64,000 bases of DNA from Candidatus Bacteroides merdigallinarum (GTDB lineage Bacteria; Bacteroidota; Bacteroidia; Bacteroidales; Bacteroidaceae): NCBI GenBank assembly GCA_019116285.1, contig DXBX01000063.1, positions 1 through 64,000 on the forward strand, read 5' to 3'. The notes below the pieces were generated by a model. The model saw only the letters and a program-made list of their open reading frames with translations. It was not told where the DNA came from and did not search any database. Shown piece by piece: positions 413 through 63,070 of the stretch. The translations under genes were made by a program, and so were the position numbers. Position 1 is the stretch's first letter. Each line of letters opens with the position of its first letter.

Positions 413-501
413 GGTATCGACGGGCAGGAGCGTCGGTACCGACGAGCACGAGCGCGGGAGCCGACGAACGCCCTCGCGGGTATCGACGAGCAACCCCCGC
501 G
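413..501 (+). repeat. 22-nt intergenic repeat array A (4 units)
   Basis: Four degenerate units start at 413, 435, 457 and 479 with GGTATC, GGTACC, GGAGCC and GGTATC, each followed by a GACGAGC-like stretch. The second unit is embedded in the palindrome CGTCGGTACCGACG. The array fills the gap between the tRNA terminator and the 3' end of comF. The same unit recurs at seven other spacers in this window. Confidence 0.85.
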
Positions 502-505
502 AAGT

Positions 506-1210
506 TCAGTCTCCGGCCACGGCCAGCGTCAGCACACTGAAGCGCACCCCCTCCACGCCATCCAGGGCATCGGCGCAGGCTGTAATCGTGGAGCCCGTGG
601 TCAGCACGTCGTCCACGAGCAGGATATGCCGCCCGGCCAAGGCCGCCGCATCCGTCACTACAAAACTGCCGTCCACATTGTCCCACCGCTGCCGGGCCGA
701 CTTCCGCGTCTGCGTCTCCGTGAACTTCCTGCGCTGCACGTACCCTACCGACACCGGGATGCCCGTCACGGCCGACACGCCCCGCGCGATGCACTCGCTC
801 TGATTGTATCCACGACGCCGCTGCTTGTCGGGATGCAAGGGAACGGGCAGCAGCAGGTCCACCCCCTCGAAGAAGCCTGTCCGCATCAGGTCCGCCGCCA
901 TCAGGCGCCCCATCGCCTCGGCACAATCCTGCCGCCCCTCATACTTCAGGCTGAACAAGACGCGCGGGTAGTCCCCGCCCTTTTGGTAACGGAAATAAGA
1001 CGTGGCCCGCTCCAGCGGGAAGCGCCCCCACAGACGGCACGCCACAGGATTGTCCGGCCGCAGGTGATAGCCGGTACGGGGCAAGGCGATGTTGCACTTC
1101 AGACACAGCACCTCCTCGGCATCATCCAAGGGAGCACCGCACACCACGCAACGCCTCGGCACGAACAGGCGGAACAGGGAGAGGAACCAGAGCTTACAGG
1201 TTTTCCACAT
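506..1210 (-). CDS. comF: ComF-family phosphoribosyltransferase-like protein
   Basis: This 234-aa protein has the ComF architecture. An N-terminal four-cysteine zinc site (C21, C24, C36, C39) comes first, then a type I phosphoribosyltransferase fold with the PRPP-binding loop ILLVDDVLTTGSTI at about 196-209. In other bacteria ComF helps bring transformed single-stranded DNA into the cytoplasm, but many naturally non-competent Bacteroidota carry it, so the role here is unknown. It is monocistronic on the minus strand, with its 3' end facing the tRNA genes across a repeat array. The length is normal and no defect was seen. Confidence 0.9.
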   Translation of the reverse strand: MWKTCKLWFLSLFRLFVPRRCVVCGAPLDDAEEVLCLKCNIALPRTGYHLRPDNPVACRLWGRFPLERATSYFRYQKGGDYPRVLFSLKYEGRQDCAEAMGRLMAADLMRTGFFEGVDLLLPVPLHPDKQRRRGYNQSECIARGVSAVTGIPVSVGYVQRRKFTETQTRKSARQRWDNVDGSFVVTDAAALAGRHILLVDDVLTTGSTITACADALDGVEGVRFSVLTLAVAGD

Positions 1211-1490
1211 TATTATATTCTCTGCAGAGTTATATCACTCACAATGTCTGGCACAAAGATACGCAATCTGCCCCAAAGCGGAACACCCTCTGCGGGAAAA
1301 AGCAAGACACCCGCCGGCGCTCGCCCACCTGCAAAGTTCTCCCTCCGACGGACAGCCCGGCAAGACGGCTTGGCAACGGGAAATGTTAATAACTGATAAG
1401 AACAGCCTTGAAGTGCAGGTACTGCGCCGTATTTTCCCTATCTTTAAGGCAGTTTTCATTGACAACCCGTTTACCTAAAAAAACATTCGC

Positions 1491-3035
1491 ATGCAAACCC
1501 ACAGATTTCCCCTCCTTTGCGCCGGCCTCGTCGCCACAACCTGCGCAGTGAATGCCCACACGGCGGACAAAGACAAGGACGCAAAGCCCAACATCCTCTT
1601 CATCCTCTGCGACGACATGGGCTACGGCGACCTGGGCTGCTACGGACAGCAGTACATCCGGACCCCCAACCTCGACCGTATGGCCCAAGAGGGCATGCTC
1701 TTCACCCAGGCCTATGCCGGAAGCCCGGTCAGCGCACCGTCGCGCGCCGCCCTGATGACCGGACAACACTCCGGCCACGGACACGTGCGCGGCAACAAGG
1801 AATACTGGCAGGGGGAGGTGATGTACGGCCGGAACAAAGACTACGCCGTCACGGGCCAGGAGCCCTATGACCCGCGCCACATCATCCTGCCCGAAGTGAT
1901 GAAACGCAACGGATACACCACCGGCATGTTCGGCAAGTGGGCCGGCGGCTACGAGGGCTCCGTCTCCACCCCGGACAAGCGCGGCGTGGACGAGTACTAC
2001 GGCTACATCTGCCAGTATCAGGCCCACCTCTATTATCCCAACTTCCTCAACCGCTTCAGCCGTGCCATGGGCGACACCGCCGTGGTGCGCGAGGTATTGG
2101 AAGAGAACATCCGCCACGCCATGTTCGGCGACGACTACCGCAACCGCACGCAGTACTCCGCCGACCTCATCCACCGGCGGGCCCTCCGGTGGCTGGACAG
2201 CCAGGACGGCTCGCAACCGTTCTGCGGCATCCTCACCTACACCCTGCCCCACGCCGAACTGGCACAGCCCGAAGACTCCATCCTGCAGGGGTACAAGAAA
2301 CAGTTCTTCACCGACAAGACCTGGGGCGGGAGCGAAGGCTCGCGCTACAACCCGGTGGAACACACGCACGCCCACTTCGCCGGCATGATTACCCGGCTGG
2401 ATGCCTATGTGGGCGAGATTCTGGCCAAGCTGAAGGAGAAGGGCCTGGCTGAGAACACGCTGGTCATCTTCAGCAGCGACAACGGCCCCCACGAGGAGGG
2501 CGGTGCGGACCCCGCGTTCTTCGGGCGGGACGGCAAGTTGCGCGGCCTGAAACGCCAGTGTTACGAGGGCGGCATCCGCGTGCCCTTCATTGCCTGGTGG
2601 CCGGGCCACGTCCCCGCAGGCCGGGTCAATGACCATCAGCTCGCCTTCTACGACGTGCTGCCTACCTTCTGCGAACTTATCGGCGACAAGCGCTTCCCCA
2701 AGAAATACGTGAACAAAGACCTGGAGGGTGACGGCTTCGACGGCCTCTCCTTCGCCCCCACCCTGCTGGGGCAGGACGAACGGCAGGCGCGGCATGACTT
2801 CCTCTACTGGGAGTTCCACGAGACAGACCAGATCGGGCTGCGCATGGGCGACTGGAAGCTGGTGGTGGTCCGCGGCGTGCCCCGCCTCTATGACCTGGCC
2901 ACCGACCTCCACGAAGACCACGACGTGGCCGACCGGCACCCCGACATCGTGCGCCGGATGACGGACATCATCCTGCGCGAACACCGCCCGAGTGACCTCT
3001 TCCGCGTGACCCTCCCCCGGGGCGCCGGACAGTGA
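1491..3035 (+). CDS. S1-family sulfatase with a serine (not cysteine) maturation motif
   Basis: This 514-aa enzyme probably removes sulfate esters from a glycan or another sulfated substrate in the periplasm. It has a signal peptide (about 1-23), then the sulfatase start NILFILCDDMGYGDLG with the metal-binding D41-D42. The active-site motif is S81-A-P-S-R85, read as S-x-P-S-R-A-x-L-x-T-G. The residue converted to formylglycine is therefore serine, which needs a radical-SAM maturase (anSME) not found in this window. A second metal site, SSDNGPHEEGG, lies near 325. The usual KWHLG motif reads KWAGG here. The gene stands alone, convergent with glsB, and its substrate cannot be named. Confidence 0.92.
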   Translation: MQTHRFPLLCAGLVATTCAVNAHTADKDKDAKPNILFILCDDMGYGDLGCYGQQYIRTPNLDRMAQEGMLFTQAYAGSPVSAPSRAALMTGQHSGHGHVRGNKEYWQGEVMYGRNKDYAVTGQEPYDPRHIILPEVMKRNGYTTGMFGKWAGGYEGSVSTPDKRGVDEYYGYICQYQAHLYYPNFLNRFSRAMGDTAVVREVLEENIRHAMFGDDYRNRTQYSADLIHRRALRWLDSQDGSQPFCGILTYTLPHAELAQPEDSILQGYKKQFFTDKTWGGSEGSRYNPVEHTHAHFAGMITRLDAYVGEILAKLKEKGLAENTLVIFSSDNGPHEEGGADPAFFGRDGKLRGLKRQCYEGGIRVPFIAWWPGHVPAGRVNDHQLAFYDVLPTFCELIGDKRFPKKYVNKDLEGDGFDGLSFAPTLLGQDERQARHDFLYWEFHETDQIGLRMGDWKLVVVRGVPRLYDLATDLHEDHDVADRHPDIVRRMTDIILREHRPSDLFRVTLPRGAGQ

Positions 3036-3059
3036 TATCGCCGGGAACATGCGCGGGAA

Positions 3060-3125
3060 TTGCCGTGCCTGCTCGCGGATACCGACGCTCGTGCTCGCGG
3101 GAGCCGACGAACACGGACACGGAAA
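3060..3125 (+). repeat. 22-nt intergenic repeat array B
   Basis: Two clear units start at 3077 (GGATACCGACG) and 3100 (GGAGCCGACGA), with weaker flanking copies. They belong to the same family as array A and lie between the convergent sulfatase and glsB genes. Confidence 0.7.
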
Positions 3126-3149
3126 CCGGCCCCGCGCACGGCAAAAGAC

Positions 3150-3217
3150 AAGGCGCGGAAAGTGCGGACACACGGGGCAAACCTGCCTCAACGTGAAATC
3201 CGCGCTTTCCGCGCCTT
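3150..3217 (-). terminator. Long hairpin between convergent sulfatase and glsB
   Basis: A 19-nt arm at 3150-3168 pairs with 3199-3217 with one mismatch (core GGCGCGGAAAG / CTTTCCGCGCC) around a 30-nt loop. Read on the minus strand the stem is followed by GTCTTTTGC, which suits termination of the glsA-glsB transcript. It may work in both directions. Confidence 0.65.
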
Positions 3218-3241
3218 CGTATGTGACGGCCCGCGGCCGTG

Positions 3242-4201
3242 TCAGAAGCACTTGGCCTCGCCGCGCTTGGCCTCGTTCTCGATGTAAGACTGGATGTGGC
3301 GCATGCGCTTCTCCACCAGGATTTCGTCCACGGCGATGAGGATGCCCGTCTCTTCGACGTCGCCGAACTCGCGGTTGATGGCGGTGCCGAACATGCGCAT
3401 CGTGGGGCTAAGGCTCATATAGGCATTGACCAGCGGGGGAATGTTGTAGCCCAACTTGCGCACCTCGCTGTTCAGTATCTTGTAATCCTCCTTGAAGGTG
3501 TCCTTGCAGAAGAGGGCGGCCAGCTCGCGTTCATCGGTCTCGATCTGCAGCGGATCGATGGGGGTGACGAGGCCCTCCTTGTCGCCAAAGTGCTTTTTCA
3601 AGAAATAGAGTATCATGTCGCGTCCCGGACGGGAGTAGTTGGGATACATCGTGACCTTGCCGAAGAAGTACTTCACATTGGGCATGACAACGGTCAGGGC
3701 ACCCAGGCCGTCCCACAGATTGTCCAAGGCGAAGAGTCCCTTGTTGTCCATGCGGGTGCGCTGATACTCCAGCGTGACGAACGACCGGGCCAGTTCGATG
3801 GTGGTGGGGAGATATTCGCGCAGGAACTTGTCGGAGAAGTGGAACATGTGGGCCGTGGCCAGCAGGGGCTGCCCCGCAGCGTCGAAGCGGACGTCCGTGC
3901 CCAGGATGTAGCGGTAGCCGCCCAGGATTTCTTCGGCCTCCGGATTCCAGACTATAAGCTGCTTGTAGGGGTGCTCCATGACATCGAACTCGTCGATGTC
4001 CACCGATTTGCCCGTACCTCCGCCGGCGGCGCGGAAGGCAATCTCGCGCAGGCGGCCGATCTCTTGCATCGTGTGAGGAGAGTCGTGGGCCGTGACGATG
4101 TAGATCTGGTTGTGACTGCGGTTGGTCATGCGCAGGCGTTTGTCTTCAGTGAGTTCCGCCTTGAGCAGTTCTTTGCTTACCGGTGCAATGATATCTTCCA
4201 T
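3242..4201 (-). CDS. glsB: GlsB-like N-acyltransferase (glycine lipid synthesis)
   Basis: This 319-aa protein belongs to the GNAT-like family annotated as hemolysin or acyl-ACP N-acyltransferase. In Bacteroides thetaiotaomicron the equivalent enzyme joins a 3-hydroxy fatty acid to glycine, the first step to glycine (and flavolipin-type) lipids. It contains the family stretches EILGGYRYILG and LARSFVTLEYQR and has no membrane segment, so it probably works at the inner face of the membrane. It follows the O-acyltransferase gene with a 7-nt gap, the same pairing as in Bacteroides. Identification rests on family resemblance and gene order. Confidence 0.88.
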   Translation of the reverse strand: MEDIIAPVSKELLKAELTEDKRLRMTNRSHNQIYIVTAHDSPHTMQEIGRLREIAFRAAGGGTGKSVDIDEFDVMEHPYKQLIVWNPEAEEILGGYRYILGTDVRFDAAGQPLLATAHMFHFSDKFLREYLPTTIELARSFVTLEYQRTRMDNKGLFALDNLWDGLGALTVVMPNVKYFFGKVTMYPNYSRPGRDMILYFLKKHFGDKEGLVTPIDPLQIETDERELAALFCKDTFKEDYKILNSEVRKLGYNIPPLVNAYMSLSPTMRMFGTAINREFGDVEETGILIAVDEILVEKRMRHIQSYIENEAKRGEAKCF

Positions 4202-4208
4202 ATGCTGT

Positions 4209-5030
4209 TCAGAGTTTATACACGATGTCTTTAACGTATTGTGCCCATTGCAGGGGCGTCTTCGACTTGTCGAAGGTCTGCCAGGGGATGGGCTTCCCGA
4301 TGGTGATGGTGAAAGTCTTGTGGCGGTTCTTCAGCATCTCGTCGGCCAAGTAGAGCATGGCGATGTTGAACTTGATGCCGAGGGCCTTGCAGACGTTGGC
4401 CAGGTTGTAGAAGAAGTTGGAGTTCCGACCGTCGAAGTGGATGGGTACCACGTCGCGTTGGTGCTGCACGCTCTTGACGATGAAAGCCTTCTTCCACTCC
4501 AGGTCGCGGATGACGCCCCCCCGGCGCCGCGAGCACAACCCGGCAGGAAACATGAGCAACTGATTGTCCGAGGCGAATCCGGCCTCGACCACGCGGGGAA
4601 AGTCCTTGGCCTGGCGTCCGGTCTTGTTGATGGGGATGCAGAGGGGCGCGAGGCCGTGCAGGTTCATCAGCAGGTCGTTGACCAGGTACTTGATCTTGCC
4701 GTCGTAGCGCGTGCCCAGCACGTAGCCCAGGGCCAGACCGTCCTGCCCGCCCAGGGGATGATTGGAAACGAAGGTGCAGAGGCGGCCGTCGGCGGGCAGA
4801 TTCTCTTCGCCACGCACCACGAGCTTCGCATCCAGGAAGTCCAGGCTGGCTTTCAAGAAGTCTACCCCGACCTTATCCTGCGCGCCACGCAGGAAGCCGT
4901 TCAGCTCATCCTGGTGGACGATACGCTTGAGGTAGGAGACGACAAACTTCGGGATATACTTCGCCTTCTGCGGAGCTTTCTCCCGCAACACCTTGTCTAT
5001 GTCTATCAGAAACAGAGAATCGTCAGCCAT
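4209..5030 (-). CDS. glsA: GlsA-like O-acyltransferase (PlsC family)
   Basis: This PlsC-fold acyltransferase has the HX4D catalytic box as NHPLGGQDG and a downstream substrate-binding stretch, LLMFPAGLCSRR. In Bacteroides the partner of GlsB adds the second fatty acid to the hydroxyl of the N-acyl glycine. The frame is open to an ATG at 5057, but the predicted promoter (-7 box at 5062-5055) places transcription start near 5048, so the ATG at 5030 is preferred and gives 273 aa. It is first in a two-gene operon with glsB. Confidence 0.87.
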   Translation of the reverse strand: MADDSLFLIDIDKVLREKAPQKAKYIPKFVVSYLKRIVHQDELNGFLRGAQDKVGVDFLKASLDFLDAKLVVRGEENLPADGRLCTFVSNHPLGGQDGLALGYVLGTRYDGKIKYLVNDLLMNLHGLAPLCIPINKTGRQAKDFPRVVEAGFASDNQLLMFPAGLCSRRRGGVIRDLEWKKAFIVKSVQHQRDVVPIHFDGRNSNFFYNLANVCKALGIKFNIAMLYLADEMLKNRHKTFTITIGKPIPWQTFDKSKTPLQWAQYVKDIVYKL

Positions 5031-5054
5031 GCTCGTTGCTATAATTTTACAGCG

Positions 5055-5086
5055 CAAAATTAGCGCATCTTTTTAATTATACACAA
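5055..5086 (-). promoter_or_regulatory. Promoter of the glsA-glsB operon
   Basis: On the minus strand TTG (5086-5084) is followed after 21 nt by TAATTTTG (5062-5055), a good match to the Bacteroidota -33/-7 pair. It decides the start codon of glsA. Confidence 0.6.
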
Positions 5087-5372
5087 CGATTTGTCAGAAA
5101 ACTGACACCAAAATCTATCAAAAGCCGTATAATATCTGCCAAGCAACTGATTTTAGCCACCGGATTGCGCAAAAGGCGCCGGAGTGTGCAAGAATTCGGG
5201 ACACGACGTCAAACATTCCGGAAACACAGATTATCTGCCCGTTGACAGTTTTCCCCCTAAAGAATGGCTGAAATCGGCCCGCCGGTTTGACGGAAAACCC
5301 GTAAACTTGCAAACACAACATTCCGGTCCCGGCAAAATGCCGGGACGGCCTGAACCTCTAAAATGAAAGATT
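5063..5372. other. Intergenic region between glsA and the ECF sigma gene
   Basis: No gene is supported in these 310 bases. Beyond the glsA promoter there is a small hairpin TGTCAG-AAAA-CTGACA (5092-5107). There is also a strong 9-bp hairpin, GTCCCGGCA / TGCCGGGAC (5326-5334 and 5338-5346, loop AAA), ending 26 nt before the sigma factor start. Short open frames on both strands lack coding character. Confidence 0.6.
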
Positions 5373-5876
5373 ATGAACAGTGTGACATTTACTAAGGAAC
5401 TGGTGAACGCGCAAGACGAACTGCTGCGCTTCGCCCTCAAACTCACCGCCGACCGTGAGGACGCCAACGACCTGCTGCAAGAAACTTCGCTCAAGGCGCT
5501 GGACAACGAAGACAAATACGAACCGCGCACCAACTTCAAGGGCTGGATATACACCATCATGCGCAATATCTTCATCAACAACTACCGGCGTATCGTGCGC
5601 GAACAGACCTTCGTGGACACCACCGAGAACCATTACCACCTGAGCGCCCCGGGCGAGACACCCGCCGAAAGCACCGAAAGTGCCTACGACCTGAAGGAAA
5701 TGCACCGCATAGTGAACGCCTTGCCCAAGGAATACCGCATCCCCTTCTCAATGCACATCGCCGGCTTCAAGTATCGCGAGATTGCCGAGAAGCTGGACCT
5801 GCCCATCGGCACGGTGAAAAGCCGCATCTTCTTCACGCGACAACGGCTGCAGCGGGAGCTGAAGGATTTCCGGTGA
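5373..5876 (+). CDS. ECF-type RNA polymerase sigma factor
   Basis: This 167-aa sigma-70-family factor has region 2 at about 10-80 (core ADREDANDLLQETSLKAL then GWIYTIMRNIFINNYRR) and region 4 at about 105-165 (LPKEYRIPFSMHIAGFKYREIAEKLDLPIGTVKSRIFFTRQRLQ). It lacks regions 1 and 3, which defines the ECF group. No anti-sigma factor or TonB-linked transducer is adjacent, so the usual membrane signalling partner is missing or distant. The next genes are convergent, so it is monocistronic. Its regulon cannot be inferred. The strong hairpin just upstream may sit in its 5' leader. Confidence 0.93.
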   Translation: MNSVTFTKELVNAQDELLRFALKLTADREDANDLLQETSLKALDNEDKYEPRTNFKGWIYTIMRNIFINNYRRIVREQTFVDTTENHYHLSAPGETPAESTESAYDLKEMHRIVNALPKEYRIPFSMHIAGFKYREIAEKLDLPIGTVKSRIFFTRQRLQRELKDFR

Positions 5877-5890
5877 ATAATCCAAGTAAA

Positions 5891-5934
5891 GGAAGAGGAT
5901 ACGCTCTGCGGAGACGCAGCGCATACCCTCTTCC
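5891..5934. terminator. Hairpin terminator between sigma gene and CE1 esterase
   Basis: The arms at 5891-5910 and 5915-5934 pair over 17 of 20 positions around loop GAGA (cores GGAAGAGG / CCTCTTCC and CTGCG / CGCAG). The two flanking genes converge here. No T-tract is present, so the function is inferred from position and stability. Confidence 0.6.
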
Positions 5935-5961
5935 CGCATGAATCGCACTTCTCACGAGGTG

Positions 5962-7155
<1,194 letters not shown>

Positions 7156-7255
7156 TCAAAATGCTCCTGCCGACTGCGTCTCGAGAAGCGGCCTTGCCTG
7201 TAGGAAAAACATCAGAACCCGCCGGAAAAAGCTGTCGAAAGCTCTGAAAAGTTGT

Positions 7256-7335
7256 ATTTCCAGGCTGGAAATACACATTTCTAGGTTGGAAATACACATT
7301 TCTAGGCTGGAAATGTACATTTCTAGGCTGGAAAT
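7256..7335. repeat. 21-nt tandem palindromic repeat, 4 units
   Basis: Units start at 7256, 7277, 7298 and 7319. Each carries the 17-nt near-palindrome ATTTCYAGGYTGGAAAT, with 8-nt arms around a central G, and units are joined by 4 nt (mostly ACAC). The first unit is a perfect palindrome. The array sits between two minus-strand genes of the glycan locus. Confidence 0.9.
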
Positions 7336-7398
7336 ACAGTTTTCAAGCGGCAAAGGCAGGTTTTTCTCTGCACTTCACAAGTTTTCCCGGGGGATTCC

Positions 7399-7432
7399 GA
7401 TGCTTCGCCCGGGGGCAGACGGGCGAAGCATC
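7399..7432 (-). terminator. Hairpin after the carboxylesterase gene
   Basis: A perfect 13-bp stem, GATGCTTCGCCCG (7399-7411) with CGGGCGAAGCATC (7420-7432), encloses an 8-nt loop 24 nt after the stop of the minus-strand carboxylesterase. No T-run follows, so it could equally stabilise the transcript end. Confidence 0.6.
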
Positions 7433-24043: not shown

Positions 24044-24097
24044 GCGCACCGGCCTTACCCTGCCGGCACATTCCCTATATCCCCGCACGCCCACGCC

Positions 24098-24166
24098 GGT
24101 ACCCGCGCTCCCGCTCGTCGGTACCCCCGCTCCCGCTCGTCGGTACCCGCGCTCGCGAGCCCCGGC
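24098..24166 (-). repeat. 22-nt intergenic repeat array C
   Basis: Three units start with GGTACC at 24098, 24120 and 24142, at an exact 22-nt period. They read in the opposite orientation to the other arrays (unit core GACGAGCGGGAGCG then GGTACC on the minus strand). Confidence 0.85.
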
Positions 24167-24302
24167 TCTCCCCCTTGCGGGGCGGGTCGGGACCCCGCAA
24201 TCCCCCACCAGCAAAGCGTTTCAGAAGAATACTTATTTTCAAGGGAATAAGTAATCAACAGGCTGTTGAAAACTTATTCGAAAGTTTTTCTGCGAAATAT
24301 GG

Positions 24303-29795: not shown

Positions 29796-31061
29796 ATGCT
29801 ATACTACTTATTCCAATGGCTTGACCAATATGACTTTCCCGGCGCGGGGATGTTCTCCTACACCTCGTTCCGCTCGCTGATGGCCGTCATCCTGGCGCTG
29901 CTCATCTCCAGCATCTGGGGCGACCGCTTCATCCACATGCTGAAGCGGAAGCAAATCACGGAGACGCAGCGCGACGCGAAGGTTGACCCCTTCGGCGTAC
30001 AGAAGGTGGGCGTACCGTCCATGGGCGGTGTCATCATCATCGTCGCCATCCTCATCCCCTGCCTGCTGCTGGGCCGGCTGGACAATGTCTACATGCTGCT
30101 GATGCTCATCACCACCGTCTGGTTGGGTTCGCTGGGCTTTGCGGACGACTACATCAAGATATTCAAGAAGGACAAGGAAGGCCTCCACGGCAAGTTCAAG
30201 ATCATCGGCCAGGTGGGCCTGGGGCTCATCGTGGGCCTGACGCTCTACCTCAGCCCGCAGGTGGTCATCCGCGAGAACATCGAGGTGGAGCAGGGCGGCC
30301 GGACGGAGGTGGTACACGCCGCCAAGGAAATCAAGGCCACGCAGACGACCATCCCCTTCTTCAAGAGCAACAACCTGGACTATGCCGACCTCATGGGCTT
30401 CCTCGGCGACCACGCCCAGGCGGCAGGCTGGGTGCTGTTTGTCTTCGTCACCATCTTCGTGGTGACGGCCGTCAGCAACGGTGCCAACCTGAACGACGGC
30501 ATGGACGGCATGGCGGCGGGAAACTCGGCCATCATCGGCCTGACGCTCGGCATCCTGGCCTACGTGTCGAGCCACATCGAGTTCGCGGGCTATCTGAACA
30601 TCATGTTCATACCGGGCTCGGAAGAGCTGGTTATCTTCATCTGCGCCTTCATCGGCGCGCTGATAGGCTTCCTGTGGTACAATGCCTATCCGGCGCAGGT
30701 GTTCATGGGCGACACGGGCAGCCTGACCATCGGGGGCATCATCGCCGTCTTTGCCATCATCATCCACAAGGAGCTGCTCATCCCCATCCTCTGCGGCGTA
30801 TTCCTGGTGGAGAACCTGTCGGTCATCCTGCAACGGGTGTACTACAAGGTGGGCAAGCGGCACGGACGGAAACAGCGCCTCTTCAAACGCACGCCCATCC
30901 ACGATCACTTCCGCACGTCGCTGTCGCAGATTGAGCAGGGCTGCAGCGTGGTCTTCACGAAGCCCGACCAACTCTTCCACGAGTCGAAAATCACCGTCCG
31001 CTTCTGGATTGTGACCATCGTGCTGGCGGCGATTACCATCATTACGCTGAAAATCAGGTAA
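29796..31061 (+). CDS. mraY: Phospho-N-acetylmuramoyl-pentapeptide transferase
   Basis: This 421-aa integral membrane enzyme has about ten hydrophobic segments and makes lipid I from UDP-MurNAc-pentapeptide and undecaprenyl phosphate. Motifs include GSLGFADDYIK (magnesium-binding aspartates), NLNDGMDGMAAG, and KRTPIHDHF in the late loop. It is about 60 residues longer than the E. coli enzyme because of an insertion around 165-200 (EVEQGGRTEVVHAAKEIKAT), common in Bacteroidota. A repeat array separates it from murD. Confidence 0.96.
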   Translation: MLYYLFQWLDQYDFPGAGMFSYTSFRSLMAVILALLISSIWGDRFIHMLKRKQITETQRDAKVDPFGVQKVGVPSMGGVIIIVAILIPCLLLGRLDNVYMLLMLITTVWLGSLGFADDYIKIFKKDKEGLHGKFKIIGQVGLGLIVGLTLYLSPQVVIRENIEVEQGGRTEVVHAAKEIKATQTTIPFFKSNNLDYADLMGFLGDHAQAAGWVLFVFVTIFVVTAVSNGANLNDGMDGMAAGNSAIIGLTLGILAYVSSHIEFAGYLNIMFIPGSEELVIFICAFIGALIGFLWYNAYPAQVFMGDTGSLTIGGIIAVFAIIIHKELLIPILCGVFLVENLSVILQRVYYKVGKRHGRKQRLFKRTPIHDHFRTSLSQIEQGCSVVFTKPDQLFHESKITVRFWIVTIVLAAITIITLKIR

Positions 31062-31074
31062 GCGCAGCGCACTT

Positions 31075-31146
31075 TGCTCGCCGGCTCCCGCGAACGCGCT
31101 CGTCGGTATCCGCGAGCACGAGCATCGGTACCCGCGAGCACAAGCA
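31075..31146 (+). repeat. 22-nt intergenic repeat array D
   Basis: Units start with GGCTCC near 31083, GGTATC at 31105 and GGTACC at 31127, at a 22-nt period, between mraY and murD. It is the only large gap in the first half of the division cluster. Confidence 0.8.
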
Positions 31147-31206
31147 ACCATATCCCGGCGGAGAAGCCGGGTGACCAAACTTAAAAAACCAAGGAGAATC
31201 TGAAAT

Positions 31207-37273: not shown

Positions 37274-37340
37274 GGTACCGACGGACACGAGCGCAGGTAC
37301 CGACGGGCACAAGCGCGGATACCGACGAACACAACCCGCA
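37274..37340 (+). repeat. 22-nt intergenic repeat array E
   Basis: Units start at 37274 (GGTACC), 37296 (GGTACC) and 37318 (GGATACC) with an exact 22-nt period, 11 nt after the ftsQ stop and 6 nt before the ftsA promoter. Confidence 0.88.
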
Positions 37341-41451: not shown

Positions 41452-41562
41452 CTCATTCCGTTTCGTTAGCGGGAGCAAAGCTACGAAAAATCCGCGAAAC
41501 CCGACCATCCCACCGCTGCCAAATCACACCCCATCCCGCCGCAGACGTCCGGGGATATTGCC

Positions 41563-41635
41563 GTCCGCGCTCGCCGGTATCCCCGAGCGCGTTCGTCGGC
41601 TCCCGCGAGCACGAGCGCCGATACCGCCGAATCCG
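41563..41635 (+). repeat. 22-nt intergenic repeat array F
   Basis: Units start at 41576 (GGTATC), 41598 (GGCTCC) and 41620 (GATACC) with an exact 22-nt period. It lies between the divergent recO and argS genes, upstream of the argS promoter. It is one of the few arrays not next to a gene 3' end. Confidence 0.82.
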
Positions 41636-51457: not shown

Positions 51458-51545
51458 GGTACCGCCGGGCGCGGGCGGAGGTACGGGTAAGCGCGGGCGG
51501 AGGTACCGCCGGACGAGGGCGGGGGTACCGCCGGGCAAACAGGAA
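51458..51545 (+). repeat. 22-nt intergenic repeat array G
   Basis: Units start at 51458, 51480, 51502 and 51524, an exact 22-nt period. The unit here is a G-rich variant (GGTACCGCCGGGCGCGGGCG). It begins 13 nt after the stop of permease 1, inside the export operon. Confidence 0.85.
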
Positions 51546-56654: not shown

Positions 56655-56658
56655 GAAA

Positions 56659-56762
56659 TAGGAATTTAGATGGGACGCAAATGGTAACTGAATTCCCCTT
56701 CTCCGGGGAGGAGGAGAATCAAGTTACCAACGTTCCAATCATCACTGCTAAATTATCATTTA
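56659..56762. mobile_element. Spacer with short form of the palindromic element
   Basis: TAGGAATTTA (56659-56668) is followed by a 65-nt element (56672-56736) with ends GGGACG and CGTTCC and the inner pairs GGTAACT / AGTTACC and CTCCGGGGAG. TAAATTATCATTTA (56749-56762) closes the spacer. Relative to the copy at 51553 the central 110 nt or so are missing. Confidence 0.7.
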
Positions 56763-56785
56763 ACCAATACATATACCAACCGATT

Positions 56786-57445: not shown

Positions 57446-57454
57446 GCGGAAGGC

Positions 57455-59836
57455 TCACTTCTTTGCGCCCTTCGCCGGTTTCGCCTCCTTGGCGGCCGAC
57501 GCCTTGGGCGCACGCTTCTTGCGCGTGGAGGCCTTGTCCGCCTGCAGCTTGATGAGGTCCATGCAGGATGCCAGGCTGAGGTCGGCGGGCTCAATACCGG
57601 CGGGAATCTTGTAGTTGTTGCCCTGGTAGGCGATGTAGGGGCCGTAGCGGCCGTTCATGATTTCCAGGTCCGGCTCTTCGGGGAACTTCTTGATGTGGCG
57701 CTTGGCCTCGGCCTCCAGCTTGTCCTTCAGCAGGCCGATGGCCACGTCGAGGGTGACGTCCAGCGGGTCGAGATCCTTGGGCAGGGTGACGTAGATGCCG
57801 TGGCCGTGCACGTAGGCGCCGAAGCGGCCGTTGCCCACGCTGACGGGCTGCCCGTCCCAGTCGCCCAGTTCGCGCGGCAGCTTGAAGAGGTCCAACACCT
57901 CGTCCAGGGTGATGGTCTCGATGGACTGTCCCCGCTTCAGCTGGGCGAAGCGCGGCTTCTCGTCCTCGTTGGCACTGCCTATCTGCGCCACGGGTCCGAA
58001 GCGGCCAATCTTGACGCTGACCTGCTTGCCGCTCTTGGGGTCGGTGCCCAGGATGCGTTCGCCCGCCTTGTGCTCGCTCTTGGCAGCCAGGGTGCTCTCC
58101 ACGGACGGGTGGAACTGGCTGTAGAATTTCTTCAGGACGCCCGTCCATTGCTTTTCGCCCTCGGCTATCTCGTCGAACTGCTTCTCCACCGTGGCGGTGA
58201 AGTTGTAGTCCAGTATGTCGGGGAAGTATTCCGTCAGGAAGTCGTTCACCACCAGGCCCGTGTCCGTGGGCAGCAGCTTGGACTTCTCCGCGCCGGTGAT
58301 TTCCTTGTGCGTCTCGTCTGCAATCTGCCCGTCCTTCAGGGTGAGCACGTTGCAGTCGCGCTCCTCGCCCGGCTTGTCGCCCTTGACGACGTATTCGCGC
58401 TGCTGGATGGTGCTGATGGTGGGCGCGTAGGTGGAGGGTCGGCCGATGCCCAGTTCCTCCAGCTTGCGCACCAGGCTGGCCTCAGTATAGCGGGGCGGAT
58501 GCTGGCTGAAACGCTCGGTGGCGGTGACGTCGCTGTACGCCAACTGCTGTCCCTTCTTCAGCGGGGGCAGCAGGCCGGCCTCGTCCTCGCGGCCCTCGAT
58601 GTCCTCGTCCTGCGAGTCGCGGTAGACGCGGAGGAAACCGTCGAACTTGACCACCTCGCCGGTGGCGGTGAAAGTCTCGGCACTGTTGCCGAGGGCGATG
58701 GTGACGGTGGTCTTCTCCAGCTCGGCGTCGGCCATCTGCGAGGCGATGGTGCGCTTCCATATCAGTTCATACAGACGCTTCTCCTGGTGGGTGCCGTCTA
58801 TCTTGGGTGCCTGCATGTTGGTGGGGCGGATGGCCTCGTGCGCCTCTTGCGCGCCCTTGGTCCGGGTGGCGAAGTGGCGGGTGCAAATGTAGCGTTCGCC
58901 CATCATCGTCCCGATGGCCTCGCGGCTGCTCTGCAGGGCGAAGTCGGAGAGGTTGACGGAGTCGGTACGCATATAGGTAATCATACCGGATTCATACAGC
59001 CGCTGCGCCACCATCATGGTCTGCGCCACGGTGAAGCCCAGCTTGCGGGCCGCCTCCTGTTGCAGGGTGGAGGTGGTGAAGGGGGCCGACGGGCTCTTGC
59101 GCAGGGGCTTCGTGGTGATGTCGCTGATGCTGAACGTGGCCGACTTGCACAGCTCCAGGAACTTGCGGGCCTCGGCCTTCGTCTTGAAGCGGCGGGCCAG
59201 CTCGGCCTTCAGTTCGACGGGCTTGCCGTCCGCATCGGGCACCAGGAAGACGGCGGTGACGCGGTAGGCGGCTTCGGTCTTGAAGGCGTTGATTTCGCGC
59301 TCGCGCTCCACGATGAGGCGCACGGCCACGGACTGCACGCGCCCGGCGGAGAGGGCGGGCTTGACTTTGCGCCACAGGACGGGCGACAGCTCGAAGCCCA
59401 CGATGCGGTCCAGCACGCGGCGGGCCTGCTGCGCGTCCACCAGGTTGAGGTCGATGTCGCGCGGATGCTCGATGGCCCGCAGGATGGCGTTCTTGGTGAT
59501 TTCATGGAACACGATTCGCTTGGTGTGCTCCGGGTTCAGGCCCAACACCTCATACAGGTGCCAGGCGATGGCTTCTCCCTCGCGGTCCTCATCGGATGCC
59601 AGCCAGACGGTGTCCGCCTTGGCGGCCTCGTCCTTCAGTTGGCTGACCAGGGCGCGCTTGTCCGCGGGGATTTCATATTCGGGCTTGAAGTCGTGGGTGA
59701 TGTCGATGCTGAACGCCTTCTTCTTCAGGTCGCGGATATGCCCGTAACTGGACAGCACTTTATAGTCCTTTCCGAGGAACTTCTCGATGGTTTTCGCTTT
59801 TGCCGGAGACTCGACAATGACAAGGTTCTTCTGCAT
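57455..59836 (-). CDS. topA: DNA topoisomerase I
   Basis: This 793-aa type IA topoisomerase relaxes negative supercoils. The TOPRIM domain has VIVESPAKAKTIEKFLG (about 6-22) and the acidic SDEDREGEAIAWHL (81-94). The active-site tyrosine is Y288 in SGMITYMRTDSVNLS. The C-terminal part lacks the four-cysteine zinc fingers of E. coli TopA and instead has several topo-C repeats with R-[FY]-G-[AP] motifs (IGRFGPVAQIG, GNGRFGAYVHG, MNGRYGPYIAY). A lysine/alanine-rich tail (about 775-793) probably helps DNA binding. The ATG at 59836 starts the conserved MQKNLVIVES. Confidence 0.97.
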   Translation of the reverse strand: MQKNLVIVESPAKAKTIEKFLGKDYKVLSSYGHIRDLKKKAFSIDITHDFKPEYEIPADKRALVSQLKDEAAKADTVWLASDEDREGEAIAWHLYEVLGLNPEHTKRIVFHEITKNAILRAIEHPRDIDLNLVDAQQARRVLDRIVGFELSPVLWRKVKPALSAGRVQSVAVRLIVEREREINAFKTEAAYRVTAVFLVPDADGKPVELKAELARRFKTKAEARKFLELCKSATFSISDITTKPLRKSPSAPFTTSTLQQEAARKLGFTVAQTMMVAQRLYESGMITYMRTDSVNLSDFALQSSREAIGTMMGERYICTRHFATRTKGAQEAHEAIRPTNMQAPKIDGTHQEKRLYELIWKRTIASQMADAELEKTTVTIALGNSAETFTATGEVVKFDGFLRVYRDSQDEDIEGREDEAGLLPPLKKGQQLAYSDVTATERFSQHPPRYTEASLVRKLEELGIGRPSTYAPTISTIQQREYVVKGDKPGEERDCNVLTLKDGQIADETHKEITGAEKSKLLPTDTGLVVNDFLTEYFPDILDYNFTATVEKQFDEIAEGEKQWTGVLKKFYSQFHPSVESTLAAKSEHKAGERILGTDPKSGKQVSVKIGRFGPVAQIGSANEDEKPRFAQLKRGQSIETITLDEVLDLFKLPRELGDWDGQPVSVGNGRFGAYVHGHGIYVTLPKDLDPLDVTLDVAIGLLKDKLEAEAKRHIKKFPEEPDLEIMNGRYGPYIAYQGNNYKIPAGIEPADLSLASCMDLIKLQADKASTRKKRAPKASAAKEAKPAKGAKK

Positions 59837-60039
59837 AGGTTTTTCCTTTGTTGGTGGCTCGTGCCACGGTTTTCGCGGCAAATGTAGGAAAAAAAGCCGC
59901 TTCCCACCTTATAATAAGGAAAGTTTTAGCAAAAAAAGTTGGGCACTGCTCCTTGGTCAACAAGCCATCAAAGATTCCATGCTTATACCGTTTGCCCCAA
60001 AAGCTGTGCCGGAACAGGAGATACAATTTCCCGTTCTGC

Positions 60040-60070
60040 TTGGTTCTCTTCCGCCGAATGCCTACATTTG
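60040..60070 (+). promoter_or_regulatory. Promoter of the vsr remnant
   Basis: TTG (60040-60042), 20 nt, then TACATTTG (60063-60070), 27 nt before the ATG. It is a textbook Bacteroidota promoter left in front of a broken gene. Confidence 0.6.
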
Positions 60071-60097
60071 CGGAACAGTTATACAGAAAGACCTTCC

Positions 60098-60364
60098 ATG
60101 GACATCTGGGACAAAATGAAACGCTCCGCCGTCATGGCTAGAATCAAATGCAAGAACACGAAGCCGGAGCTTATCGTGCTCCGGAAGTACCGGGTGGCGA
60201 TATTTGTGCACGGGTGCTTCTGGCACGGGCATGAGGTGGACGGGCATATTCCACATTCCAACACCGCGTTCTAGGCAAAGAAGATAAGCCGGAACAAAGA
60301 ACGGGACGAACGCAACAAGAAACGTCTACAGGAAATAGGTTGGATATGGAAAGGACGATTCTAG
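60098..60364 (+). pseudogene. vsr: Decayed vsr (very short patch repair endonuclease)
   Basis: The start MDIWDKMKRSAVMARIKCKNTKPE and the segment VAIFVHGCFWHGHE are clear Vsr signatures. The intact protein nicks T:G mismatches left by deamination at Dcm sites. Two defects are visible. About 22-25 residues between KPELIVLRKY and VAIF are missing, which removes part of the catalytic core. The codon for a conserved tryptophan (SNTAFW in relatives) is TAG at 60272, with the frame continuing as AKKISRNKERDERNKKRLQEIGW to a stop at 60362. It sits beside the Dcm-type methyltransferase it normally serves. Confidence 0.85.
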
Positions 60365-61561
60365 TCAGGAAAGCAGGAAATGACGCGGCATACGTTCTTG
60401 CTTCTCTTTCACCAAGCGAATGAACCCGGCAAGGTCTTGCAGCTTGTCCCTCCATTCTGGCGGAAAGCTGGTGACATACTTGTGCGGAACTACCAACGTC
60501 AGGTGCGAATCGGCCATTTCTTTCAGCTGGTTGCGCGAGATGCCTTGTTGCAGGGTAAAAAGGAACTTCTCCTCCACGCGGTCGGCTTCGGTCAGAACCT
60601 GCCGCCAACGATCCTTACAAGTGGTCTTGGCGCCAAGTACGGTCAAGTCGTCGGCAGGAAAGAGCAAGTTGTGATAACATTCTCCGTTCGGGAAAAGGAA
60701 GTCGGGCTTCTTGTTGTCTTCCGTCACAGCCTGTTCTTCGAATATCAGCCCGTTGCCGGTGAAGATGTCCGCCAGGTGGTGTTCCAGCGACTTGCCGGCG
60801 CGGGACTTGCGACGATTGAGAACCTCGTTAGCAGCCTGTACGAAGGCGTCTACCGTACCAAATGGCCGGGAAACGAGGTCACCATACACTTTCTCCTCCA
60901 TATACTTGAACAGGCGGAACTCCGTGTCTATCCATCCAAGGAGAATATCATCCGGGCAGGTCATCAAGGTGTGCGCAGACAGGTTGCCGACTTTATTGTA
61001 ACACTCGCGTGCACCAGCTGCCATCTGCCTTGTTTCCGGGAAACCGCTGAAGCGGGCGGTGAACTCCTCGAAAAGCTGCAAAAGCCGTTCTTCCGGCTTT
61101 ATGCTTCCGGCCACGTCTATCAGACGGTTAATCTCGTCTGGCGACAAGTTGAAACTGGCTAGGAAGCCGTCTATGTCATCGTCTGTACCGAGCACATACC
61201 CCGCATAATCCTCCTCGCTGAATTTGGCTATGACCAGCAAGTCGCCCACGTTGTCATCTTGCAGGAAAGGGAAGTTGCGTCCGAAACGGGTAATGCGGTA
61301 TTCATTGCGCGTCTTTTGGCCATAATATTTCATACAACTCTCCGTGACAAAATCGTCCTGCCAACGGATACGGACGGTTTTTTCCTTGTTCTCGCCCTTG
61401 CGCCCAGGCTGGTCAAAGAGCAAAGTGGATGCATACTTGGGCACATAGAAACCTGCCTGATGGCTTCCGGTCGTACCTGCATCATTGCCTGTGATAAAAC
61501 GGCACCACGCTGCTTGGGATTGTCGGACGCTTTGGATGGCTGCACTCAATAATTCACTCAT
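60365..61561 (-). CDS. EcoRII-type type II restriction endonuclease
   Basis: This 398-aa enzyme has both EcoRII domains. The N-terminal DNA-binding regulatory domain (about 1-150; YGQKTRNEYRITRFGRNFPFL) is present. So is the C-terminal PD-(D/E)xK catalytic domain (about 230-390), with NRRKSRAGKSLEHHL, KKPDFLFPNGECYH and the catalytic AKTTCKDRWRQ. EcoRII cuts before CCWGG and needs two sites, so the same target is likely here. Its start overlaps the methyltransferase stop by 8 nt (ATGAGTGA). The ATG at 61561 is preferred over upstream in-frame codons for this coupling. No defect was seen. Confidence 0.93.
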   Translation of the reverse strand: MSELLSAAIQSVRQSQAAWCRFITGNDAGTTGSHQAGFYVPKYASTLLFDQPGRKGENKEKTVRIRWQDDFVTESCMKYYGQKTRNEYRITRFGRNFPFLQDDNVGDLLVIAKFSEEDYAGYVLGTDDDIDGFLASFNLSPDEINRLIDVAGSIKPEERLLQLFEEFTARFSGFPETRQMAAGARECYNKVGNLSAHTLMTCPDDILLGWIDTEFRLFKYMEEKVYGDLVSRPFGTVDAFVQAANEVLNRRKSRAGKSLEHHLADIFTGNGLIFEEQAVTEDNKKPDFLFPNGECYHNLLFPADDLTVLGAKTTCKDRWRQVLTEADRVEEKFLFTLQQGISRNQLKEMADSHLTLVVPHKYVTSFPPEWRDKLQDLAGFIRLVKEKQERMPRHFLLS

Positions 61562-62837
61562 AACCGTCAAGTGTTTGGATAATTTGCTTGGCAACAGCTG
61601 TTATAAGCGGCACCACTACCGAATTTCCGCATTGACGGTAGGCCTGCACGTCGGACACCTTGTCCAAGATGTAATTGTCCGGATAGCCCATAAGGCGGGC
61701 ACATTCGCGCGGCGTCAGCTTGCGGGGATTCCTGCCTTCCTGCGGAATTAGGATTTCCGAACCGTCCTTATAGTAACGTGCGCTCAGCGTGCGAGTAATG
61801 CCGTCAAGGTCGGCCATACCGAAACCGAAACCGTTTCCCTTGGCCTTATGCTTCTCGGCATATCCTTGCAGATAGTTCCACAGTTTGTCGGACAGGGTGT
61901 ATTTCTCGACCGGAGCATCCTCCAGGATGTTGCGCAGTCTGGGTTGAATCCCGGTAGGAGCGGGAAACTCAAAGTGCTCCTCCCCTTGATAACGTCTTTT
62001 GTCAAAACCCACTATCATAATGCGCTCGCGATGCTGGGGCACGTAGTCCTTTCCGTCCATCACCTGGTAATGGATGGAGTATTCCAGCTCTTCCAGCGTA
62101 GAACGGATGACGCGGAAGGTGTTGCCCTTGTCGTGCGCCACGAGGTTCTTCACGTTCTCAAGGAAAAAGGCCTTCGGGCGGTGGCGGCTGATGATGTCGG
62201 CCACGTCAAAGAACAGCGTGCCCTGGGTCTTGTCCCTGAACCCGGTTTCCCTGCCGAGGCTCTTCTTCTTGGAAACGCCGGCTATCGAAAAAGGCTGGCA
62301 AGGGAAGCCTGCGCAGAGCACGTCGAACTGCTCCGGGATATACCGCTTCGTCTCTTCCTTGGTGATGTCCCCGAAAGGCATTTCGCCGAAATTGGCCAAG
62401 TACGTTTTCTGCGCAAAAGGGTTCCACTCGGACGAAAACACGCATTTCCCGCCCTGTGCCCGCATCGCGAGGCGGAAACCGCCCATTCCCGCAAAGAGGT
62501 CGATGAAGGTGAATTTGTAATCTATTGGGTCAGGAAACGGCACCTTGAAGAAATCGCCGAACAGTCCGGCCTGCAAGGGTTCACTTAGCACTTGATCGGA
62601 GATGTATGCTTGGGGGAATTTGTATTCGAGATATTCTTTCAGATATTGCTTTGCTTCCAGCCGGGTGAAATCGCGTATCATGTCCTGCCCGTGCAAACAA
62701 TGGGTGATGACGGCCAATTGGTTGTCGTAGGACTTGGGACCGTAGAAATAGACCTGTACCTTCTCCCCGGAAATATCTTTAACAGAAATCTTTTCCGGAA
62801 AGTTGGATAGTCTGATATCGGACAAAGCGATGCTCAT
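61554..62837 (-). CDS. dcm: Dcm-type DNA (cytosine-5) methyltransferase
   Basis: This 427-aa methyltransferase protects the restriction sites of the adjacent endonuclease. Conserved blocks are FTFIDLFAGMGGFRLAM (SAM binding), CAGFPCQPFSIAG (catalytic cysteine of the PCQ loop), QGTLFFDVADII, FFLENVKNL, QHRERIMIVGF, and the late RQCGNSVVVPL. An N-terminal extension of about 130 residues is like that of Dcm and M.EcoRII. CCWGG specificity is inferred from the EcoRII partner. The frame is open 68 codons upstream across a tandem repeat, but the ATG at 62837 lies after a good promoter. Confidence 0.94.
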   Translation of the reverse strand: MSIALSDIRLSNFPEKISVKDISGEKVQVYFYGPKSYDNQLAVITHCLHGQDMIRDFTRLEAKQYLKEYLEYKFPQAYISDQVLSEPLQAGLFGDFFKVPFPDPIDYKFTFIDLFAGMGGFRLAMRAQGGKCVFSSEWNPFAQKTYLANFGEMPFGDITKEETKRYIPEQFDVLCAGFPCQPFSIAGVSKKKSLGRETGFRDKTQGTLFFDVADIISRHRPKAFFLENVKNLVAHDKGNTFRVIRSTLEELEYSIHYQVMDGKDYVPQHRERIMIVGFDKRRYQGEEHFEFPAPTGIQPRLRNILEDAPVEKYTLSDKLWNYLQGYAEKHKAKGNGFGFGMADLDGITRTLSARYYKDGSEILIPQEGRNPRKLTPRECARLMGYPDNYILDKVSDVQAYRQCGNSVVVPLITAVAKQIIQTLDGYE

Positions 62838-62862
62838 AAATTTTTGTTCGTGATTAATGCTG

Positions 62863-62894
62863 CAAAGATAAGACATTTTCTGCAAATTCGGCAA
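62863..62894 (-). promoter_or_regulatory. Promoter of the restriction-modification operon
   Basis: On the minus strand TTG (62894-62892), 21 nt, then TATCTTTG (62870-62863), 26 nt before the methyltransferase ATG. The -33 element lies within the first unit of the 23-nt repeat. Confidence 0.6.
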
Positions 62895-62978
62895 TTTGGC
62901 GCGGATTTGTTCGGCAATTTGGCATGAAATCGTTCGGCAATTTGGCGCGGATTTGTCCGGCAATTTGGCGGCAACGGG
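62887..62978. repeat. 23-nt tandem repeat upstream of the methyltransferase (4 units)
   Basis: Units start at 62887, 62910, 62933 and 62956 with the core TTCGGCAATTTGGC. Units 1 and 3 are identical over 23 nt, unit 2 differs in its second half and unit 4 diverges into array H. The repeats cover the -33 region of the methyltransferase promoter. Confidence 0.9.
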
Positions 62979-62982
62979 CACA

Positions 62983-63070
62983 GGCACGCCCGCCCTCGGG
63001 CGGAGGTACGCCCAAGCACGGGCAGGGGTACCCCCGGACACAAGCGGAGGTACCCCTGCCCACGAGCGGC
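62983..63070 (+). repeat. 22-nt intergenic repeat array H
   Basis: Units start at 62983 (GGCACG), 63005 (GGTACG), 63027 (GGTACC) and 63049 (GGTACC) at an exact 22-nt period. It directly follows the 23-nt array and ends 13 nt before the stop of the TonB-dependent receptor gene. Confidence 0.85.

What the first reader, a model, noticed from the sequence alone, without database searches (positions are those of the whole stretch)
413..63070. One degenerate 22-nt unit repeated in short arrays at eight intergenic sites
Arrays lie at 413-501, 3060-3125, 24098-24166, 31075-31146, 37274-37340, 41563-41635, 51458-51545 and 62983-63070. The period is 22 nt almost everywhere. The first six bases (GGTACC, GGTATC, GGAGCC or GGATACC) and the following GACGAGC-like part are best kept. 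Some junctions form the palindrome GTCGGTACCGAC. None was found inside a coding region, and seven of eight adjoin a gene 3' end. A 22-nt period is close to two helical turns, which would put every unit on the same face of DNA. This could be a site for an architectural or chromosome-organising protein, a transcript-end element, or a REP-like selfish repeat. I know of no named family that it matches.
Basis: partly seen in the sequence, partly recalled or inferred. Interest (0 to 1): 0.8.

Follow-up and report, generated by a model that had tools for sequence, protein, structure and literature searches.

The report
Exactly 22-base repeat arrays in Bacteroides
Scattered through the gaps between genes of this gut Bacteroides are dozens of short arrays of a 22-base unit; related species carry arrays of quite different units, yet the 22-base step stays the same, which points to a little-known kind of dispersed DNA element whose spacing matters more than its sequence.

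Summary
All eight arrays are real and intergenic. The genome, a Bacteroides close to Candidatus B. intestinavium, holds at least 68 such arrays of 2-5 units; in 464 kb they are 16 intergenic, 0 coding. In intergenic DNA every pair of GRTAYC cores up to 70 nt apart lies at exactly 22, 44 or 66 nt: 41 of 41 here, 120 of 120 in the sister species, although neighbouring units differ at a third of positions. Eighty Bacteroidaceae loci show the same period, 51 intergenic against 2 coding, mostly with unrelated units; other families of the order give 1 in 393 kb. Arrays are often dyad-symmetric, unbiased in strand, and come and go between relatives. Tests for terminators, RAYT-linked REPs and CRISPRs were not met. 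The nearest published thing is the BrickBuilt minisatellite-MITE of Porphyromonas gingivalis. Best reading (0.4): a dispersed cassette whose working part is a DNA-phased array of dyads, read by an unidentified protein. Main rival (0.33): a BrickBuilt-like selfish element. No protein, transcript or transposition was shown.

The parts
413..500 (+). Array 1, 4 units of 22 nt, between tRNA-Asn and the 3' end of a comF-like gene
3034..3121 (+). Array 2, about 4 units (first two degenerate), between convergent genes (sulfatase-like; GlsB acyltransferase)
24082..24169 (-). Array 3, 4 units, 38 nt after an AraC-type gene
31067..31152 (-). Array 4, 3-4 units, in the mraY-murD spacer; the sister species has a GATATC-type array here, and G033 a third kind of repeat (not at lag 21-23)
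37274..37339 (+). Array 5, 3 units, in the spacer before ftsA; array also present in Ca. B. intestinavium, absent in G015 and G033
41538..41625 (-). Array 6, 4 units, between divergent genes (recO-like on the left)
51458..51545 (+). Array 7, 4 units of the GGTACGGGTAAGCGCGGGCGGA type that is common in G015; spacer is 290 nt here and 6 nt in G015
62983..63070 (+). Array 8, 4 units (first degenerate), 12 nt from a gene 3' end
7236..7365 (.). Related kind, family B: 4 units of 21 nt (ATTTCYAGGCTGGAAATACAC-like), dyad-symmetric; another copy (L217:2833) is flanked by the arms CCGCTTGAAAACTCT/AGAGTTTTCAAGCGG
62876..62984 (.). Related kind: 23-nt array (TTCGGCAATTTGGCGCGGATTTG) that abuts array 8

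Best explanation
These are dispersed, non-coding cassettes of mostly 3-4 quasi-palindromic 22-bp units. Shown: they are multi-copy, intergenic, present at some orthologous spacers and absent at others, and fixed in phase to the single base while the sequence drifts and the genome's favoured core 6-mer changes (GGTACC-type here, largely GATATC in the sister species). Inferred: the working part is double-stranded DNA. A dyad every 22 bp, two helical turns at an in-vivo repeat near 11 bp (recalled), lines up equal sites on one face so that a dimeric or structure-reading protein can bind several units cooperatively; the cassette acts as a docking platform in the gene spacer, for chromosome organisation or local regulation, and units follow the protein's changing taste. 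Inferred: copies spread as whole cassettes, as the dispersed four-unit arrays of P. vulgatus and family B suggest. The protein and the copying enzyme are unknown.
For: Exact spacing: 41 of 41 core pairs in this genome and 120 of 120 in G100 are at 22, 44 or 66 nt (the G100 stretches were chosen around model hits), while adjacent units here are only 67% identical (161 pairs), so many substitutions and no indel were kept between recognisable cores. Of 15 sites that could be paired with G100 DNA, 8 gave comparable arrays in both genomes; with a looser core the gaps are 22 or 44 in both at 6 of the 8, beside a few stray matches, and unclear at sites 3 and 31. Core 6-mers: GATATC 77 of 132 units in G100, 4 of 287 here. 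Unit number is narrow: 60 of 68 arrays have 3 or 4. Dyad symmetry: 25 of 39 arrays of other Bacteroidaceae fold with z below -2 on at least one strand against column-permuted arrays, mean -2.3 and -2.4 on the two strands. Strand use is not biased (16 same, 23 opposite to transcription), nor are G-U pairs on the sense strand (25 v 17, p 0.28; 5 v 8, p 0.58), which suits DNA better than RNA. Family B keeps an exact period of its own with the core ATTTC[CT]A: 46 of 46 at 21/42/63.
Against: One genome carries several unrelated unit families, all near 22; a single sequence-specific protein cannot read them all. Family B is exact at 21 and others are at 23, so 22 is not obligatory; looser family-B cores also give stray distances. 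Array presence turns over fast: the ftsA spacer is empty in G015 and G033, and 7 of the 15 paired sites had a missing, partial, different or rearranged partner in G100. Intrinsic curvature is not above column-permuted controls (own mean z -0.56, others 0.17 with 7 of 76 above 2; wedge parameters recalled). Folding predictions cannot tell DNA from RNA, and the own family's fold signal is weak (mean z -0.9 and -1.0, 18 of 68 below -2). In a consensus-dyad test only 9 of 39 arrays reach p 0.05. Ortholog units are still somewhat more alike than non-ortholog ones (0.54 v 0.47), so homogenisation is partial; unit orientation there was assigned by a quasi-symmetric motif.
Confidence: 0.4

Rival explanations
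1. A selfish, non-autonomous mobile repeat of the BrickBuilt kind: a small cassette with a tandem core, copied by a transposase acting in trans, with no host function; exact spacing reflects copying of whole units and recency.
For: Multi-copy families private to a genome: 68 arrays here; 169 matches in B. ndongoniae with its own unit, 91 weaker ones in one other genome and 0 in the remaining five of the seven searched. Units of arrays more than 1 kb apart in one locus match at 15.6 of 22 positions (8 pairs, six of them from two genomes; the pairs in L092 and L098 are not alike), between genomes at 10.06 (1261 pairs), permutation p 0.0002. One four-unit array of P. vulgatus lies at 7 places, the other six 74-82% identical over 84-88 nt; of five copies aligned, three have the left end ATCGTTTCAC and three the right end GTGAAACGAT. 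Occupied and empty orthologous spacers. Family B copies with inverted arms. Placement near the upstream stop codon, away from the next gene's start (31 of 39).
Against: The 22-nt family here has no shared terminal sequence (flank information at most 0.41 bit except in the four positions next to the array on each side, which reach 1.10 on the left and 0.56 on the right) and no left-right flank complementarity (z 0.3); no target duplication was seen by eye at the empty sites read. Most arrays compared at shared sites keep their phase in both species, where neutral relics should have gained indels. No transposase was linked; Y1_Tnp is absent here.
Confidence: 0.33
2. RNA elements: tandem hairpins in operon spacers and untranslated regions that set mRNA stability, processing or termination.
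For: Strong predicted folding in other species; in codirectional spacers 31 of 39 arrays sit nearer the upstream stop codon, median 28 nt; several P. vulgatus copies have extra complementary flanks; in the 80 other loci 14 of 51 arrays lie between convergent genes.
Against: No strand or wobble bias relative to transcription; here 24 of 65 arrays lie between divergent genes and only 2 between convergent ones; no terminator-like site inside the three arrays scanned, one at an edge; no Rfam family matches in the window at gathering score apart from two tRNAs; exact 22-nt spacing is not needed for separate hairpins.
Confidence: 0.15
3. Plain minisatellites born by replication slippage at tolerated places, with no function and no dispersal.
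For: Neighbouring units are more alike (0.667) than units of different arrays (0.584); one orthologous pair differs by about one 22-nt unit (S54).
Against: One family at 68 places needs dispersal; one period across unrelated sequences, absence of indels between cores and dyads are not expected of random slippage.
Confidence: 0.08

Closest known systems
BrickBuilt minisatellite-MITE, Porphyromonas gingivalis (PMC4596501; abstract and sections 5, 7 part 1, 8 and 9 read)
   Same: Dispersed, intergenic only, imperfect tandem units of 23 nt without spacers, predicted stem-loops, whole-unit copy-number changes, some occupied/empty sites; same order (recalled). The paper also says that 41-, 23- and 22-nt tandem repeats had been noted in strain W83 without locations
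   Different: BrickBuilt has 1-23 units, leader and tail segments and IS5-like terminal repeats, and is reported only from P. gingivalis and P. gulae; the family here has 2-5 units, no shared ends, a 22-nt step, and relatives of the same design but other sequence across Bacteroidaceae
REP elements, GTAG- and CGTC-tagged (PMC3733652; abstract and passages read)
   Same: Short palindromic intergenic repeats, many copies; the paper reports CGTC-tagged repeats in Bacteroidetes too, and those have no dedicated transposase
   Different: No RAYT domain in this genome; tandem exact phasing. Whether the units here fall under the CGTC kind was not tested; one strand of the unit does hold CGTC next to the core
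Plasmid iterons (recalled)
   Same: Directly repeated sites about two helical turns apart, bound on one face
   Different: Tens of chromosomal copies, dyad-symmetric, no replication gene named beside the arrays of the window
Noc and SlmA binding sites (recalled)
   Same: Tens of palindromic chromosomal sites; in B. ndongoniae none of 93 listed places of its main family falls in about 1 Mb around the likely terminus
   Different: Those are single sites of one fixed sequence, not arrays; no such protein was identified here

Membership tests
BrickBuilt MITE | 23-nt unit of BrickBuilt sequence | tested here: not met
   Unit is 22 nt; majority unit GGTACCGACGAGCACGAGCGCG. The BrickBuilt sequence itself was not fetched or aligned
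BrickBuilt MITE | Leader/tail segments with terminal inverted repeats | tested here: not met
   No conserved flank beyond partial units; left-right complementarity z 0.3
BrickBuilt MITE | Always intergenic, multi-copy, tandem core | tested here: met
   16 intergenic, 0 coding in 464 kb; 68 arrays, 2 of which fall inside called ORFs in short loci
BrickBuilt MITE | Target site duplication at empty/filled sites | tested here: inconclusive
   Empty sites exist but edges are too degenerate to call a duplication
REP with RAYT | Y1 transposase (PF01797) in the genome | tested here: not met
   No match in this genome (80.6% complete); 12 of 60 genus genomes match
REP, GTAG- or CGTC-tagged | Palindromic hairpin of 20-40 nt with an unpaired GTAG or CGTC end tag | not tested
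   No systematic test of a tag was made; PMC3733652 reports CGTC repeats in Bacteroidetes
CRISPR | Repeats separated by unique spacers | tested here: not met
   Units abut directly
Intrinsic terminator | GC-rich hairpin followed by a T run | tested here: not met
   None of 13 terminator-like sites in 30.5-42.5 kb (11.1 in shuffles) lies inside the three arrays there; one (31060-31074) touches the edge of array 4. The other five arrays were not scanned
Phased protein-binding array | Exact helical spacing kept under sequence drift | tested here: met
   161 of 161 core pairs at multiples of 22; adjacent units 67% identical
Phased protein-binding array | A cognate DNA-binding protein | not testable with these tools
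   Needs pull-down or ChIP

The most novel reading that the evidence does not exclude
Bacteroidaceae chromosomes carry a genome-wide set of docking platforms whose code is spacing and dyad symmetry rather than sequence: unit sequences are replaced from species to species while the 22-bp step is held to the base. They would be read by an undescribed structure-reading or fast-evolving protein that organises the nucleoid, perhaps excluding the terminus as Noc and SlmA sites do.
Probability: 0.22. Interest if true: 0.92.

Novelty: new variant of a known kind. Interest (0 to 1): 0.75.

Why it matters
Bacteroides, Phocaeicola and Prevotella are among the commonest human gut bacteria, and 39 of 80 sampled loci of this family hold at least one such array, a kind of element that I found described only for P. 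gingivalis. A period held to one base while sequence turns over is an unusual signature. It gives a direct experimental handle (change spacing, keep sequence) on what holds such arrays in place, and may lead to an unknown chromosome-binding protein or copying enzyme of this family.

Tried and rejected
Coding repeat: rejected, 22 is not a multiple of 3 and the arrays are intergenic. Terminators: rejected for this family. RAYT-linked REP: no Y1_Tnp. Intrinsic curvature: not above column-permuted controls. RNA-level selection through sense-strand wobble: no signal. Terminal inverted repeats or locus-specific outer stems: none in general (own z 0.3, other Bacteroidaceae 1.0; G100 2.4 with 3 of 37 above the 95th percentile), though several P. 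vulgatus copies and family B show them. Full homogenisation of units between sites: only partial; at eight sites ortholog identity 0.54, non-ortholog 0.47, within own 0.51, within G100 0.54. Origin/terminus pattern: seen for one family in one genome from a capped list, not repeated. Literature: eight listings on repeats (one search listed none) and one on nucleoid occlusion showed no account of a family-wide 22-nt array class; the library is open-access only, so this is weak. Papers seen: PMC4596501 (abstract, sections 5, 7 part 1, 8, 9), PMC3733652, PMC5771137, PMC7585543 and PMC4060949 (passages only), the rest as listings. Rows dropped: one weak own candidate (C8, 11.8 bits) was never fetched; the tool scored 150 of 1561 first-look candidates and cut its list, so 68 is a lower bound; simple repeats were filtered out of the lag counts, not. 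Of the 14 within-locus pairs, six lie in one spacer, some overlapping; one search repeats the test without them.
Full report
What was checked. Genes were called with a codon-usage script; some flanking genes were named with NCBIfam: mraY, murD, ftsA and GlsB above their cut-offs; comF-like, sulfatase-like, AraC-type and recO-like below. Two arrays therefore sit inside the division/wall gene cluster, between mraY and murD and just before ftsA. The genome (G000, 2.73 Mb, 93 contigs; 80.6% complete) is closest, among named records, to Candidatus Bacteroides intestinavium (MurC 92% identical); G100 appears to be that same genome (contig of 50171 bases and an identical ftsA spacer).

Genome-wide. 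A 44-position sequence model of two units gave 170 matches at E up to 10 here and matches at E up to 0.01 in 7 of 149 genus genomes, this one included. Fetching the places gave 68 distinct arrays with 229 units: 5 of 2 units, 36 of 3, 24 of 4 and 3 of 5. Half of the 16 are in the window, so it is richer than the rest.

Exactness. Taking only the core GRTAYC and no assumption of phase, all pairs within 70 nt in intergenic DNA fall at 22, 44 or 66 nt: 21+15+5 here and 66+40+14 in G100 (the G100 stretches were chosen around model hits). Coding DNA shows no such peak in the distances printed (15-30 and 40-49). Adjacent units here are 66.7% identical (161 pairs), units of different arrays 58.4%. 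Substitutions have been kept in number, and indels between recognisable cores not at all. A set of 21-nt arrays (family B) is equally exact with the core ATTTC[CT]A, 46 of 46 at 21/42/63; looser cores give some strays.

Generality. Autocorrelation in 80 named Bacteroidaceae loci (1.58 Mb around murC) gives 51 intergenic and 2 coding arrays at lag 22, in 39 of the 80 loci; apart from the harmonic lag 44 (33), no other lag from 12 to 30, nor 42 or 46, exceeds 7 intergenic (an earlier, cruder gene call gave 39 and 14). Bacteroides, Mediterranea, Phocaeicola and Prevotella groups all contribute. Other families of the order give 1 in 393 kb, other families of the class 0 in 200 kb, other classes 1 in 200 kb. 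B. ndongoniae sampled at 20 places along three contigs gives 25 intergenic and 0 coding at lag 22 in 400 kb, other lags 12-30 at most 3, with several unrelated unit families. Units tend to be private to genomes: arrays more than 1 kb apart in one locus match at 15.6 of 22 positions (8 pairs, six from L019 and L043; L092 and L098 gave 12 and 9), between genomes 10.06 (1261 pairs), permutation p 0.0002. A model of the B. ndongoniae unit finds 169 matches in its own genome, 91 weaker ones in one other, and none in the remaining five of seven searched. Some hairpin units (AAAGGTGGCACCTTT) recur in several species.

Symmetry. In 39 arrays of other species the mean folding z against column-permuted arrays is -2.33 and -2.39 on the two strands, 25 of 39 below -2 on one or the other; this genome's 68 arrays average -0.89 and -0.97, with 18 below -2. 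A consensus-dyad test is weaker: 9 of 39 at p 0.05, 5 of 39 at p 0.01. Core variants here (GGTACC 60, GGTATC 41, GATACC 38, GATATC 4 of 287 units; strand labels uncertain) are what C-to-T changes at the fifth base on either strand would give; GGCTCC (22) and GGAGCC (20) are not.

Turnover and inheritance. Of the 68 sites, 15 could be paired with the G100 DNA at hand. Eight had arrays in both that could be compared; at the other seven the partner was missing, partial, of another kind or in a rearranged spacer. One pair differs by about one whole unit (S54). With a looser core the gaps are 22 or 44 in both genomes at 6 of the 8, beside stray matches, and unclear at sites 3 and 31. The favoured core differs by genome: GATATC in 77 of 132 G100 units against 4 of 287 here. 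Elsewhere an array is present in one relative and missing in another: the ftsA spacer is empty in G015 and G033; array 7's spacer is 290 nt here and 6 in G015; G015 has an array in a spacer that is 12 nt here; the mraY-murD spacer has three different repeats in three genomes. In P. vulgatus one four-unit array occurs at seven places; the six other copies are 74-82% identical over 84-88 nt; of five aligned, three have the left end ATCGTTTCAC and three the right end GTGAAACGAT. So arrays seem to be copied as cassettes, lost and gained, yet those retained mostly keep their phase.

Placement. Of the 68, 39 are codirectional, 24 between divergent and 2 between convergent genes, 2 inside called ORFs in short loci (L158, L184; perhaps gene-call errors) and 1 without a left gene; spacers of 100 nt or more in the sample are 94, 39 and 22. 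In codirectional spacers 31 of 39 lie nearer the upstream stop codon, and unit strand is not biased (16 same, 23 opposite). In the 80 other loci convergent spacers are common (14 of 51), so no single rule of placement holds; many of those loci share one spacer and are not independent.

Mechanism. Shown: dispersal, intergenic confinement, exact phase, dyad tendency, genome-specific units, turnover. Inferred: that phase is kept because a protein binds several units on one face of the DNA. The strongest objection is that several unrelated families share the step in one genome, which argues for a reader of structure or for a copying enzyme with a fixed step rather than one sequence-specific protein. 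RNA function, curvature, termination and RAYT mobilisation were each tested and not supported.

Comparison. BrickBuilt of P. gingivalis (PMC4596501; abstract and sections 5, 7 part 1, 8 and 9 read) is the nearest in kind: intergenic, dispersed, 23-nt tandem core, stem-loops, occupied and empty sites. It differs in length, leader/tail and terminal repeats, and reported range. The same paper says that 22-nt tandem repeats had been noted in strain W83 without locations, so short arrays of this size in the order are not wholly unreported. PMC3733652 (passages) reports CGTC-tagged palindromic repeats in Bacteroidetes; I did not test the units against that definition. I therefore call the present find a new variant of a known kind, with the family-wide, base-exact 22-nt step as the new part. 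None of the nine literature listings showed that class described.

Noticed in passing
window 7236-7365; L217:2833-2948, L224:13208-13323 and others: Family B: four 21-nt dyad units flanked in several copies by inverted arms, themselves of 21-22-nt units (AAGCCGCTGGAAAAGTTCTCG); 10 copies read in 464 kb.
   Followed up: partly
window 62876-62984: A 23-nt array of another sequence directly abuts array 8; similar arrays occur in G015 (L253:10960) and G100 (L242:12458).
   Followed up: no
G266 (B. ndongoniae) contig C1 0.06-1.07 Mb: None of 93 listed places of its main array family (capped list) falls in this 1 Mb, where GC skew changes sign as at a terminus; 39 lie on C10 from 0.38 to 0.97 Mb beside the likely origin. 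Confounded by GC content; arrays of other families do occur at C1 0.1 and 0.4 Mb.
   Followed up: partly
L247:6738, L262:16887, L263:17053, L266:17744, L021:17041: Hairpin unit AAAGGTGGCACCTTT or close relatives recur in several Bacteroides species at 22-nt spacing, so some families are shared across species.
   Followed up: no
L340, L338, L339 around position 1500: Several P. vulgatus copies have locus-specific complementary flanks outside the array (e.g. CTGCCTTTTCA/TGAAAAGGCAG).
   Followed up: partly
G266 contig C1 1,940,617: dnaA lies on a different contig from the GC-skew origin (C10 about 0.4 Mb).
   Followed up: no
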